Assembly (NCBI GenBank): GCA_030765065.1
Contig: CM060986.1
Span: forward strand, 81,895,573-81,959,572
Length of the DNA: 64,000 nt
From: Deroplatys truncata
Lineage: Eukaryota > Arthropoda > Insecta > Mantodea > Mantidae
Reading direction: 5' to 3'
A model generated the notes under the pieces. The model saw only the letters and a program-made list of their open reading frames with translations, had not been told where the DNA came from and did not search any database. Of the stretch, positions 13,001 through 34,000 are shown one piece after another (position 1 is the first letter of the stretch; each line of letters opens with the position of its first letter). Made by a program: the position numbers and the translations under genes.

Positions 13001-16000
13001 CTATATACTAATGTAAGGAAATCAATGTATTTAATTTTCCAGTATGTGTATGAAGATGTTATGAATCTGTTAGCTAGAATTACCAGTGTAGCAGCTGTTA
13101 TCTACACCAGTAGCTTCAGAGAATGTGCATTAAAACCTATTGTGGAGAAGGAAAAGGATTGGACAGAAAACTTCTGCTTAAACATGGGATTTGATGACCC
13201 TAAATTTATTGACTTCTTGAGACTGTTTTTAATTATTTACAGGTGATTCTTGTATCAACATAATAATAATGTTATACAGAGAGAATTTGTATGTGTGTGC
13301 TGAGTGTTCTCAAAAAATACAGAAGTAATTTTGGCAATTGTTTCACCACCACTGAAATGAAGGTTTATTCCAGAGAACAAGAGACAAGATGCTTCCAAAA
13401 GCTTCCAAAATTTTAAATTAGGGAATTTTTAATCTTTCATATTCATCCAGGGCACAGCAAGAGGGGAAGATTGGTTATCGCTCACCTGAGATCAAATTAA
13501 AGTTTGCTTTTTGATGGTTTTTTTTTCCCCCTCTCTCCTCCCCATTTATATTAGACCTTGCTGTTGATAACCCTCAAGGGAAAATAAGTTATGGGACCAA
13601 AGAGAAGGTACAAAGGTTTAAAATTTCACTGATTGTATTTATCTAACAAGTTACTCAACCATTCCAATTGATGATAGGCCAAGCAGAATTTCCAGAACTT
13701 GGAAGACTGTTCGGGGTAAGTTAAGGAAGTAAGATGTTCCATCAATGTTTCACATACTTTTATGAGATTTTCCATCCTACAAATAGCCAGGTCTGTGAAA
13801 TTGCAATTATAAGGGGTAAAGGATAGGATTCAGCAACTTGTAGATCAATGTACAATAATTTCATAAGAAATGTGATTAACTCCCTCCATTTCATAAAGTC
13901 AAAAAGGAACAAGTTTTCTTTCTTCTTTTGTTTTTCTTTCTTTCTTGAAATAGTTTAACTAATAACACTAGTGTTCTTACTTTCGATCATCAATAAATTA
14001 TGTCATTCTTTTATATTTTCCCCATTATTCATTAGTGAACATAATCAAGTTGTGGTATAATCTATTATTTTTTCATCCTGCTTCTGGAAAATTCATTTGT
14101 ACTAATTTGAAATATTGCTAGGAAAACATTTCGTTATTTTACTCATTGGTTGCTTGGAATTTCATTAATTCACTACTCTGAGGAACCTTTCAAGGTAGAA
14201 AAACCATTATGTATTACTTCGGAGGTTATATTCATGTTAATTAATGAATTCTGTTGAACATCTGGTAAATGAGTGAATTTTCATTTTATATTCTTAATAT
14301 TTTATGTTCCAATTGTTCTAAAGCACAGATACATAATATACAAAAAAAAGAAGCAAATACCCTGAAAACATGTGGAACATGGCTTTAAACCTAGAGCATG
14401 CACAAAGTGGCATAATTTGACTTATAAAATACTCAAAGCACTCATTTACCACCCATGTCCCTTGCAATTCATAACAGACAACAATCTACAATTAAGAAGT
14501 TGTAAAAAAAAAAGCAAGTTATTTTAGGAATAACAAATGTGATACTTCTCCTGGTGTATGAAAAATGAAAAAATCATTTTATTTTCCATTTGATCTTGCA
14601 GCAACCAAGAAATCCAACTCTCTTAACATTGCTTAAGATCTGTTCATCCATTCAGTTTAACTCAAAACTATGAAAAAGGAAATGCATCTTATTTGTGAAA
14701 TAATCATTTCAGGTACTTAAACAAACACAGAAATTGTAACAAAAATACAGAGCACTAAAGAATCCCTTTCTGACAGGAATATAATTACTTCAACAGTGCT
14801 AGATTCTCAAACCTAACAAAGTATAACATTGTTACTTATTGAGCAGAGTGTAATTGTGATGTCCAACATTAACAAAATTTTGTTTTTATTTAGTGACCAT
14901 GGAGGTGGAGGCATACCGGCGCATACAGCACATCTTGTTCACTCTGCTCTTTCTGATGTTTATCTTTCATATGCTGCTGCTGTTAATGGCATAGCTGGTT
15001 ACAGAGATGGACTAGCAATTCAAGAGGTAGTAACAGTTAATTTGTGGCTCTAAGAATTATAGTTTTGGAAACATATGCAGTATAGACAAACAAATTGGTC
15101 TAAATTAATTTTCAGATTAATTGTCCTCCATGTCCTATGCTATCTCCGAAGCTAGTAAGAGATGTTGGAAGCTGTCAGTTAGGTATTTTGTGTCAAACAC
15201 ATGCCTGGAGCATCCCAACACTAGAAGTACTGCTTGCATGTGTCTGAATCACATCTTCTACTATAAGGCACTATCAGGATGTCCCTAATCATGATGGTGA
15301 AGCCTTTTAAATATAGATATCTTTGGCAGTTAATTCAATGAACATTTTTTAATTTCATTAAAAGCTATAAAACTATATTTAATTGGCACTAGGCATTGAA
15401 ACATTCCCTTTGCACCCAGAAGACAATATCTGATATTTTGGTTTGCTTATCTTTGGTTACAAGAAATGCTCCAGGTTTATGACGTGCAAACTCCAAGAAT
15501 TATGGCGCTTATTTCCAGAGTTTCATAGAGAACATCAGACTGACATTGACAGCTCCCACAAGTTAGCAAAAGGTGCAGGAAATAGTCAAAACTTACATTG
15601 GAAGCATATGCAGATTGTTTTCGTAAAAACTAAATAGCTTCATCATTGTGCATATGCAGTCAGTGCTAGTATTCATATAAATTGTTTACTGTATACAATA
15701 AGAGCATAATTATCAAGATTTAAAAATACTGCTTTTTAATTTGTCAAGCTTTATTCTCTAGAAAACTTATGTCCAATAATGCACTATAAACATTCAGAAA
15801 CCTTAGTTTTATGTTTTATATTTGCATTCATATTTTTATGTACCAATTTCTTTGCTGTAATCTTTGTAATAACTTTTTACAGTTTGTTTAAATTTCACAA
15901 GGAATAGATTACTATTCTGAATATACATAAAAATGAAACTAGTAACATGAAGCAATTACACAAATAAATTATAAGTAATTTATCATATATTTACTATTCT

Positions 16001-31000: not shown

Positions 31001-34000
31001 AGGGACGTGTGGAAAACAAAACTGCTAGTCACCCTTCAGATAAAGGAGAGGAGTGGGGTGTGCTATGTTTGGTTTATGTTTGGAAGTTGATTCAGATAGC
31101 ATGAGCTACCTTGACCTGTTTGCAATGTTGCTAATTTCTACAACCACATTATGACTGCAAAAAGTTATTCATAATATCCTTTTAAGCGATTAATCATTTC
31201 AAACCCTGTGGATGTCACATAATTACTATCATAACTATGTCACAAATAGGTTACCCTGCTCATCTTATAACAAACCATTATCTTCATACACTCTCGTTGA
31301 ATATAACATCTAATTTGGAACAAAAAATATTTGTTTATTCAAAAGCGGCTGATCAATGAACAAAATGCTATTATACTTTTTTGTCTGTAATACTTCCACA
31401 AAGTAGATATTGAAGGGAATGCAAAGTTCCCTTCACCCAGTATAATTAAATTCAGTATTGACATACAATAAAGAATTTGTTTGTTTAAGCATGTACACAT
31501 TTTTTATGGATTCTCAATTTTTATATACCTATATAAAACTATCAGAAATAAAAACTCTCAACTACTGAAAGAAGTAAATTTAGACCATACTACTTTTTAC
31601 AGGTAGATAGATCAAGTACTACATTTTACCCAAAAATATTGAGCATAAACAACAATAAAAGTATATTTAATTTACTATTTTGTTGCTTGTGATTGTAGCT
31701 GAGTTAACTCCAAATCATATATGAGTATAACATGTTTTGAGGATCTTTGAATCCCCCCACAAGTAGATTTAGAAAAGTCATTAAGTGAATAAGTACGAGC
31801 GAGAGAGGGAGATAGAGATAAATACCAAATACTTGAATTAGACATTGTATAGGGAGCTAGCAAAGATTTTCTAAAAAATCCACTGCTCCAAAATACCTTT
31901 TAAATGGAAATATACTCATAAAACAATTACTTAAAAAATAAAAAGACTAGATCTGCTATAAAGTGGTTGGTAGTATTTAAATTCAACAGTTGAATCAGAT
32001 TTGAAGCATTAAATTCAGTATCTCCAGATCTTTGTCCTTCCATTCCACTTGCATGTATATGCAGAAAACTACTCTTATCTGATTCATATATTCCAGTAAT
32101 CCCCTCCAAGGTTATCTCAATTAATGTGTGATATCCTACCATTTATGTGACTTGCAATGCTGCAAGTACTTTTAACTCCCATAGGAGTCAATTTGTATGT
32201 TATTTCTTCCTTCATACTACCTGTGTGCAGGGCACAGAAAGCTGAAGATTCATGGTTCATACACAATTTGTCGCAATGCATTTTTCAAATCTAGACATTG
32301 TGAAGGAACAATTAATGATATTTAATTCAACTTTGAAATCTGAATCAATATAAACACTTAAGCTCCACTTACATTATTCTTACTTTCTCTGCTGCACATG
32401 TATACAGTAGGTATTGTATTCCAACCAAAAATTTGATATTAGATTTCACCAGAAATATATGTTTGTACCCCTAAAATAAAAAACACCATTTTCAAAAAAG
32501 CTCCATATGTGTGTGCATGCATGCCAAAAACAAAAATATCAAACTTAGTATTTAAGTTCAATGTCTTCCAAAGATGCAATATGAAAATGTTTAAGAAAAT
32601 CCCTCCATTCAAAACTATGCTTTACATAGAATACTTTTCTGAAATGTTTGTTTTTCTCAGAAATAGCCCTAACGATTTTGGTTAAAATAGCACTTGTTTA
32701 AGATATTTACATGAAAAATAAAAAGTATATCTTGAATTAGCTAGGAATAGCCTGCGAAGTCATCTTCATTCAGAAGGAATTATGTATAATATAATTTTGT
32801 ATAACTAGTAAACATTAAGAGATAGACAAATGTATACTACACAATAAGTGGAGATCCGTTTAAAGTATGTAATTTATTCCAAATAACTTTTTTGTGGCAT
32901 CAACCATTTCTGAGATATTTGTTATTATTGATAATTTTTCAATATTTGGTCATTTTTTAAAGCACTGTCACTATTCAGTTGTTTCTTATGATGTGATGAA
33001 AAGAGCATGGAACTTCAAGGCCAACATAAAGCCACTCACTTTTAAACATCCGACTTTCATTTCGGTTTCCTCTATCCCCCTTGCACCTACACAAAATGTA
33101 TAAGGAAACCATTTTGCAAAGACTTTATGTCAGCTAACAAGAAGTAAATAGAAACATAAGTTTTCATAACTATAAACCTAGTGGGAAGAAAAAGTCATGT
33201 AATCCAACACAGATTTTCTTTTAATTAAGACATGTTTAAAGGAAAATAATGCCTTAGTAAACAGAATTACATAAGTGAAACTTAAGTGTTTTAATCTTGA
33301 TTCAGATTTCCACTGTATATAACACTGTGTTTTAGTATACATAGCAATATTTAATTTATTCTGAACTGAAAGAAACTTTAATTACATCCCATTTTGTCTG
33401 AAAAAGTACATTTCATCATTTTATACAACATATTCTAAAGCATTTACTTTTTCTTTCAGGTGGTTGGGCAGTTAGCTAACATTTTACCACCTTTGCTGAA
33501 AGCTAATGGAAAGCAAAGTACCTGTCCAAATGTTCATGCTCATTCAGGAGTTATCCTTCATGTAAGAAGTATTTATTTTTCTTCATATGCTGACATCAGA
33601 AAAGTTTATGATAGTATAATAAATCCAACACAGAAACCAACCAATTAGAGCAGAGGTGGGCAGAAGTCAGTTTTGTGCCCACAACACAACGCAACCCTTA
33701 TAAGAAACAAGGAAGAAAGGCATTGCTGTAAGGGTAGGGGGAAGTTATGGTTTAAAGCTCCTGCTGTGACAGTTGAGAGCAGTTTAGTTCACTATTATAT
33801 TGTGTCCTTGGCCATATAACAACATACAAGAGAAAATAATCATAGATTTAACTTTCTTCTTCTGCTTCTTTTTGTTTTTCCTGTTCTTCTTTCTCCTCTT
33901 CTCCACATCCCTTTTACAAGAATTTCAAAATTTGGTGTAATGTCTGTAACAGCCAGATGTAAGTGGGCCAATAGATGGTCATCTATGAGAATGGATCTTG

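What the first reader, a model, noticed from the sequence alone, without database searches (positions are those of the whole stretch)
14894..33561. Citrate synthase CS-1 has its catalytic His274 and Asp375 exchanged (H274D with D375H)
Seen: codon 15006-15008 is GAT (Asp) in [10 protein letters not shown] where the family has PLHGLANQE. Codon 33535-33537 is CAT (His) in CPNVHAHSG where the family has PNVDAHSG. Counting the human precursor (His301, His347, Asp402) puts both at catalytic positions. Known: Asp375 abstracts the acetyl-CoA proton and His274 stabilises the enol, with His320 acting on oxaloacetate. Here His320 and the oxaloacetate-binding residues are kept. Inference: a reciprocal swap suggests either a mirror-image acid/base arrangement, a new reaction, or a pseudo-enzyme kept for dimerisation or regulation. 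Both changes are mid-exon, so splicing cannot explain them.
Basis: partly seen in the sequence, partly recalled or inferred. Interest (0 to 1): 0.92.

Follow-up and report, generated by a model that had tools for sequence, protein, structure and literature searches.

The report
Citrate synthase genes with swapped catalysts
An animal genome, probably an insect's, carries a cluster of four extra citrate synthase genes, three of which have two key catalytic amino acids exchanged with each other yet stay intact and under selection, so a textbook enzyme seems to have been remade for another job.

Summary
CS-1 is intact over exons 2-9 (453 codons, AG/GT at every intron) with Asp at pig 274 and His at pig 375. 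It is not alone. Five citrate synthase loci were found in the host genome: one ordinary copy, and a tandem array A - CS-1 - CS-2 - CS-3 around the window. A, CS-1 and CS-3 all carry D274 with H375, and R46H; CS-2 is canonical there. A is the close sister of CS-2, and CS-1 of CS-3, so the coupled exchange was gained twice, or gained once and reversed as a set. None of the five genes has only one exchange. The swapped copies are under purifying selection: dN/dS 0.40-0.46 for CS-1/CS-3, about 0.35 on A's branch. None of 240 listed relatives examined has D274; no database protein of comparable length shares three words with the stretch around PNVHAHSG. Loss of CoA contacts in all three (R46; K164 in A; R324 in CS-1/CS-3) argues against acetyl-CoA chemistry. 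Best reading: maintained, CoA-independent citrate-synthase-fold proteins, pseudoenzymes or a new activity. Expression, targeting and activity are untested.

The parts
894..1055 (+). CS-1 exon 2 (exon 1, with start codon and any targeting peptide, not identified)
   Evidence: tblastn and AG/GT boundaries
7104..7301 (+). CS-1 exon 3; R46H codon CAT at 7119-7121
11404..11592 (+). CS-1 exon 4
13043..13242 (+). CS-1 exon 5
14894..15026 (+). CS-1 exon 6; H274D codon GAT at 15006-15008; N242G and S244P also here
21197..21394 (+). CS-1 exon 7; H320 kept (CAT 21308-21310), R324Q (CAA 21320-21322), two-residue deletion before the GYGH loop
33460..33561 (+). CS-1 exon 8; D375H codon CAT at 33535-33537; K368Q
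37124..37303 (+). CS-1 exon 9 with stop codon TAA at 37301-37303; R401 and R421 kept
37373..37378 (+). AATAAA, possible polyadenylation signal, 69 bases between it and the stop codon
   Evidence: meaning inferred
59286..59450 (+). CS-2 exon 2
62432..62629 (+). CS-2 exon 3 (R46 kept); exons 4-9 lie beyond the window at C12:81965528-81989069, with canonical H274 and D375

Best explanation
CS-1 belongs to a tandem array of citrate synthase paralogs. An ancestral two-gene unit X-Y was duplicated as a block to give A - CS-1 - CS-2 - CS-3. Y-type genes (CS-1, CS-3) carry R46H, H274D and D375H; the X-type copy A carries the same three changes, while its sister CS-2 keeps the canonical residues at these three positions. 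Shown: intact frames and splice sites over exons 2-9, purifying selection, coupled change, loss of CoA contacts, retention of the oxaloacetate/citrate arginines and H320. Inferred: the swapped proteins no longer make citrate from acetyl-CoA. They are kept as citrate-synthase-fold proteins that still bind a small di- or tricarboxylate in the retained oxaloacetate pocket, with a carboxylate and an imidazole facing each other in reversed order across a vacated acyl pocket. Most likely they act as pseudoenzyme subunits, with themselves or with CS-2 or the housekeeping enzyme (R421 from one subunit completes the partner's site, as recalled), rather than as acetyl-CoA condensing enzymes.
For: Intact frames over exons 2-9 in all four array genes. 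dN/dS for CS-1/CS-3 0.40 (NG86) or 0.46 (YN00), 32 synonymous and 49 nonsynonymous differences, p 2e-4; for A/CS-2 0.36 or 0.42, p 1.3e-6; A's own branch about 0.35 (25 N, 19 S, p 8.5e-4). Between CS-1 and CS-3, exons 6 and 8, which hold the two swapped residues, differ at 1 of 78 codons against 44 of 375 elsewhere (p 0.0014). The swap is in A, CS-1 and CS-3 and not in CS-2 or the C8 copy. Of 52 sites where CS-2 equals the C8 copy and CS-1 = CS-3 differs, A has the CS-1/CS-3 residue at 5: 46, 194, 274, 375, 383; the converse pattern gives 2 conservative sites. Neutral simulation: at least 5 such sites in 0.155% of 20000 runs, exact pair in 0.025%, triple with R46H in none. CoA contacts lost: R46H in all three, K164A in A, R324Q and loop changes in CS-1/CS-3; R46, R164 and K366 named as contacts in PMC8455617 (passages), R324 from recall.
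Against: No transcript, peptide or structure was available. Exon 1 was not identified. dN/dS of 0.35-0.48 shows only moderate constraint, and CS-2, the canonical-looking copy, is not more constrained than A (0.48 against 0.35). CS-1 and CS-3 keep K164, so not every CoA contact is lost. The clustering of changes at the pocket, tested with a pocket set that I chose after seeing the list, is weak (p 0.048 and 0.023). CS-1 and CS-3 have no synonymous difference in exon 8, so local gene conversion between them is possible. If the pair were simply dispensable, the same reversed pair would not be expected in two gene types, which points towards a specific function that 'dead subunit' does not explain.
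Confidence: 0.5

Rival explanations
1. Reversed acid/base enzyme. D274 acts as base and H375 as hydrogen-bond donor on a thioester or another small acyl group rotated by 180 degrees, or on a CoA-free substrate, giving a new or mirror-image condensation or cleavage reaction.
For: The pair is exchanged and not just lost, in two gene types. The exons holding it differ least between CS-1 and CS-3. H320 and the carboxylate-binding arginines are kept. A keeps N242, P272, L273 and R324.
Against: All three swapped copies lost R46; A lost K164; CS-1/CS-3 lost R324 and changed the loop at 312-314. No activity data.
Confidence: 0.27
2. History rival (can hold together with either mechanism): the array ancestor was swapped and CS-2 reverted to the canonical state, so the exchange arose once.
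For: By hand parsimony at 274 and 375 is tied. A and CS-1/CS-3 share CTTCAT at the end of exon 8. At site 170 A also matches CS-1 while CS-2 matches the C8 copy.
Against: In the protein tree CS-2 has a tip of 0.011 and A one of 0.092, placing most X-type change on A. It requires concerted reversal at 46, 194, 274, 375 and 383.
Confidence: 0.25
3. History rival: A received the swapped residues from CS-1 or CS-3 by gene conversion.
For: Tandem neighbours; CTTCAT at the end of A exon 8 matches CS-1.
Against: A's D274 codon is GAC where CS-1 and CS-3 have GAT, in an otherwise CS-2-like context. Synonymous sites show no excess of A-Y sharing: 13 against 19 for CS-2-Y. It would need several tracts of a few bases.
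Confidence: 0.1
4. Decaying pseudogenes or assembly error.
For: Long stem of Y (0.91) and 51 of 157 near-invariant columns changed in CS-1.
Against: Three copies with the same two residues, no internal stops, splice sites kept. dN/dS below 1. Neutral drift of the CS-1 frame to 60% identity left 9.9 stops on average and 0 of 500 runs was stop-free.
Confidence: 0.07

Closest known systems
Mitochondrial citrate (Si)-synthase (Pfam PF00285; PDB 5UQS is the best match, pig 2CTS the second)
   Same: Similar over residues 13-448 of 453 (phmmer E 6e-121 to 5UQS); introns at the same places as in the C8 copy over exons 3-8; H320 and R329/R401/R421 kept
   Different: H274D, D375H and R46H, plus R324Q, N242G and a two-residue loop deletion in CS-1/CS-3, and K164A in A
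Drosophila CG14740, a second citrate synthase expressed only in the male germline (PMC10593830, passages seen)
   Same: Insect citrate synthase paralog beside a ubiquitous one
   Different: Its residues at 274 and 375 were not examined here; males lacking it are fertile; no tandem array is described in those passages
Caulobacter CitA, whose cell-cycle role does not need catalysis (PMC7083601, abstract and passages)
   Same: Citrate synthase fold used apart from activity
   Different: CitA is itself a working enzyme; the authors inactivated it at the residue matching E. coli H306
Citrate synthase homology domain of ATP citrate lyase, assigned an allosteric role (PMC10115795, abstract)
   Same: Citrate synthase fold with a non-condensing role
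   Different: Part of a larger enzyme; has an essential Asp (D1026)
Trypanosomatid deoxyhypusine synthase with a catalytically dead activating paralog (PMC3663545, abstract)
   Same: Model for a dead paralog that works by hetero-oligomer formation
   Different: Unrelated enzyme; shown by experiment, whereas here it is a proposal

Membership tests
Citrate synthase (as homologous family, PF00285) | Full-length sequence similarity to solved citrate synthases | tested here: met
   69 PDB sequences matched, best E 6e-121 over residues 13-448; CS-1 exons 6 and 7 over the PF00285 cut-off in the genome search
Citrate synthase (as active enzyme) | Catalytic H274, H320, D375 | tested here: not met
   D274, H320, H375 in CS-1, in A and in CS-3
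Citrate synthase (as active enzyme) | CoA contacts R46, R/K164, R324 (R324 from recall) | tested here: not met
   R46H in A, CS-1, CS-3; K164A in A only; R324Q in CS-1, CS-3 only
Citrate synthase (as active enzyme) | Oxaloacetate/citrate contacts H238, R329, F397, R401, R421 (list from recall) | tested here: met
   All kept in CS-1; N242 lost in CS-1/CS-3, kept in A
Citrate synthase (as active enzyme) | Condenses acetyl-CoA and oxaloacetate | not testable with these tools
   No assay possible
Pseudoenzyme | Lacks residues that define the active family | tested here: met
Pseudoenzyme | Retained by selection | tested here: met
   dN/dS 0.40-0.46 for CS-1/CS-3 and about 0.35 on A's branch
Pseudoenzyme | No catalytic activity, role through binding | not testable with these tools
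   Needs protein
Pseudogene | Disrupted frame, splice sites or neutral evolution | tested here: not met
   (exons 2-9; exon 1 and promoter not tested)

The most novel reading that the evidence does not exclude
The citrate synthase active site has been turned round at least twice within one gene array: Asp and His exchanged places together with loss of the CoA anchor R46, giving a selected, CoA-independent acid/imidazole pair over a kept oxaloacetate pocket, that is, a new enzymatic activity reached by parallel evolution from a central metabolic enzyme.
Probability: 0.27. Interest if true: 0.9.

Novelty: new variant of a known kind. Interest (0 to 1): 0.74.

Why it matters
Citrate synthase is a textbook enzyme whose two residues acting on acetyl-CoA are H and D in all but one (a D375V) of the 235 retrieved relatives whose two motifs could both be read. 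A coupled exchange of the two, kept by selection and present in two gene types, offers a natural double mutant with a close canonical-looking sister (CS-2, 88% identical to A). That makes a direct test possible of whether general base and enol stabiliser can be interchanged, or whether the pair serves something else once CoA binding is given up.

Tried and rejected
Sequencing or assembly error: rejected, since three copies carry the pair, with different Asp codons (GAC in A, GAT in CS-1 and CS-3). Splicing: both codons are mid-exon. Recent haplotype duplicates: rejected, because noncoding divergence is 0.119 for CS-1/CS-3 and 0.135 for A/CS-2. Relatives with H375: a search restricted to CS-1 residues 366-406 found no candidate sharing three words; it covers only proteins of 0.55-1.75 times the query length with this motif context. 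Relatives with D274: a search restricted to A 266-306 gave 6681 proteins, of which only the 120 listed could be checked; with the 120 listed of 2077 that is H274 in 240 of 240, D375 in 234, V in one (P0152), and no 375 motif readable by that pattern in five (one of the five, P0039, has D375 in the alignment). The 69 PDB matches were not checked residue by residue beyond the five alignments printed. Papers: listings showed no report of this exchange; the library is open-access only. Species: not identified; a genome-size paper search gave nothing. The C8 copy falls among insect sequences in the tree (83/85 support), and the mitochondrial ND2-COX1-COX2 order (genes named by eye) fits an insect, as recalled.
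Full report
Observation. The two codons are as stated: GAT at 15006-15008 and CAT at 33535-33537. tblastn with a citrate synthase bait found exons in order on the + strand. The model for CS-1 has exons 894-1055, 7104-7301, 11404-11592, 13043-13242, 14894-15026, 21197-21394, 33460-33561 and 37124-37303, with AG/GT at every intron, 1362 bases, one terminal stop. Exon 1 was not identified. Aligned to pig citrate synthase and the 120 relatives listed (of 2077), CS-1 has D at 274, H at 320 and H at 375; the relatives have H, H and D in 120 of 120. 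PMC5518231 (figure legend seen) states that H274, H320 and D375 take part in catalysis.

What else changed in CS-1. Of 85 columns invariant in those 120 relatives, CS-1 changes 23. They include H235Y, N242G, P272Y, L273R, R324Q and P370T; R46H and S244P are in near-invariant columns. H238, H320, R329, F397, R401 and R421 are kept, and so is K164. PMC8455617 (passages) describes hydrogen bonds of acetyl-CoA with H274, D375, R46 and R164 of the partner subunit, and a link to K366; R324 as a CoA contact is from recall. A test of clustering at the pocket gave p 0.048 (invariant columns) and 0.023 (95% columns), with a pocket list that I chose after seeing the changes, so it is weak.

The array. 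The host genome (4.29 Gb, 818 contigs, unnamed) was searched whole with PF00285 and with CS-1 exons 6-9. The 12 and 17 matches all fall in five loci: one on contig C8 and four on C12, in the order A, CS-1, CS-2, CS-3, within about 276 kb (C12:81819188-82095719). Gene models for the four are intact over exons 2-9, with AG/GT at every intron and one terminal stop: 453, 453, 457 and 454 codons. The C8 copy was modelled over exons 3-8 only; it keeps all 135 near-invariant columns that it covers and is taken as the housekeeping enzyme. CS-1 is 90.1% identical to CS-3, and A 87.6% to CS-2; between the two types identity is about 60%; to C8 about 55% (A, CS-2) and 44% (CS-1, CS-3). The A to CS-1 intergenic stretch matches the CS-2 to CS-3 stretch in a colinear chain of 7.4 kb at 80%, against 0.28 kb for a control pair; gene against gene the chains are 18.2 kb (A/CS-2) and 20.4 kb (CS-1/CS-3) but 2.1 kb (A/CS-1) and 2.9 kb (CS-2/CS-3). 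So a two-gene unit X-Y was duplicated as a block.

The exchange recurs. A reads PLDGLANQE and [13 protein letters not shown]-1 and CS-3 read YRDGLAIQE and [11 protein letters not shown]-2 and C8 read PLHGLANQE and NPWPNVDAHSG. R46H accompanies the pair in all three swapped genes. A and CS-2 differ at 56 residues. Of the 52 sites where CS-2 equals C8 and CS-1 equals CS-3 but differs from CS-2, A has the CS-2 residue at 45, the CS-1/CS-3 residue at five (46, 194, 274, 375, 383) and another at two (59, 244). The converse, A equal to C8 and CS-2 equal to CS-1 and CS-3, occurs at two sites, both conservative (124, 298). Beyond what CS-2 has changed, A changes four fully invariant columns: H274D, D375H, D59N and K423R; in the wider 95% set it adds R46H, K164A and S244T. 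A neutral simulation from CS-2 with 56 replacements gave a mean of 0.89 such sites, five or more in 0.155% of 20000 runs, the exact 274/375 pair in 0.025%, and the triple with R46H in none. A was found after the hypothesis was set by CS-1, so it is an independent case; the choice of the five-site statistic was made after seeing A.

Two gains or one gain and a reversal. Parsimony at 274 and 375, done by hand, is tied. The protein tree gives CS-2 a tip of 0.011 and A one of 0.092, with CS-1+CS-3 on a stem of 0.91, which favours change on A. The joining of A with CS-2 is not resolved in that protein tree, but synonymous distance (0.17 against about 0.9, NG86) and alignable introns join them. Conversion from CS-1 to A is unlikely: A uses GAC for D274 where CS-1 and CS-3 use GAT, and synonymous sites show 13 A=Y against 19 CS-2=Y. 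Against this, the end of A exon 8 (CTTCAT) matches CS-1 and not CS-2 (CTACAG) at two bases outside codon 375, and at site 170 A matches CS-1.

Selection. CS-1 against CS-3: 32 synonymous and 49 nonsynonymous differences, dN/dS 0.40 (NG86), 0.46 (YN00), 0.42 (plain count), p 2e-4 for less than 1. A against CS-2: 45 and 63, 0.36, 0.42 and 0.38, p 1.3e-6. Polarised with Y as outgroup (noisy at that distance), A's branch has 25 N and 19 S (about 0.35, p 8.5e-4) and CS-2's 23 N and 13 S (about 0.48, p 0.029). Exons 6 and 8, which hold the swapped residues, differ between CS-1 and CS-3 at 1 of 78 codons, against 44 of 375 elsewhere (p 0.0014); exon 8 also has no synonymous difference, while noncoding sequence near it does diverge. 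In A against CS-2, by contrast, exons 2 and 3 hold 29 of the 56 differences and exon 2 has dN above dS (0.152 against 0.092). Neutral drift of the CS-1 frame to 60% identity produced 9.9 stops on average, and 0 of 500 runs stayed open. The swapped genes are therefore maintained over most of their length.

Novelty. The best listed relatives of CS-1 in a set of 5.8 billion proteins are at most 45% identical (120 listed of 2077, candidates capped at 8000), so no close relative of the array showed up. A search on residues 366-406 found no candidate sharing three words. Of 240 proteins listed by two searches all have H274; 234 have D375, one has V (P0152), and five have no motif readable by that pattern. 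Paper listings showed no such report.

Mechanism. Shown: coupled exchange, loss of CoA contacts, kept carboxylate-binding residues, selection. Inferred: no acetyl-CoA condensation; function by ligand binding and dimer formation, or by a new CoA-independent reaction that uses the reversed pair. Known cases of citrate synthase folds working apart from condensation are Caulobacter CitA (PMC7083601, abstract and passages) and the ATP citrate lyase module (PMC10115795, abstract); a dead paralog activating its partner is known for trypanosomatid deoxyhypusine synthase (PMC3663545, abstract). Drosophila carries a second, testis-only citrate synthase (PMC10593830, passages). Whether the array is expressed, and where, is unknown.

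Noticed in passing
C12:81819188-82095719 (A and CS-3 outside the window; CS-1 and start of CS-2 inside): Four-gene tandem array of citrate synthase paralogs formed by a block duplication; see report.
   Followed up: yes
P0152 (protein): Reads PNVVAHSG, that is Val at the catalytic Asp position, with H274 kept.
   Followed up: no
window 22256-24838 (CS-1 intron 7) and 42204-49508 (between CS-1 and CS-2): Broken frames that look by eye like copia-type, piggyBac-type, mariner-type and LINE-type elements (translations; names from recall). None interrupts an exon of CS-1.
   Followed up: no
window about 1550-1700, 5500-5680, 17046-17120, 20440-20580: Long trinucleotide-type repeats, seen as single-residue runs.
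   Followed up: no
G000, for example C16:611-673 Mb, C12:187497786-187499126, C638:59317-60657: 99 matches to COX1 (PF00115), several full length, most on chromosome-sized contigs; the C12 and C638 copies have equal scores, so much mitochondrial DNA seems to have been copied into the genome.
   Followed up: no
window 33460-33561 (CS-1 exon 8): K368, the residue methylated by METTL12 in human citrate synthase (PMC5518231, abstract and passages), is Gln in CS-1; A and CS-2 keep Lys.
   Followed up: partly
A exon 2, C12:81819188-81819352: A and CS-2 differ at 15 of 55 codons here with dN 0.152 and dS 0.092; exon 2 is also the most different exon between CS-1 and CS-3 (13 of 54 codons).
   Followed up: no
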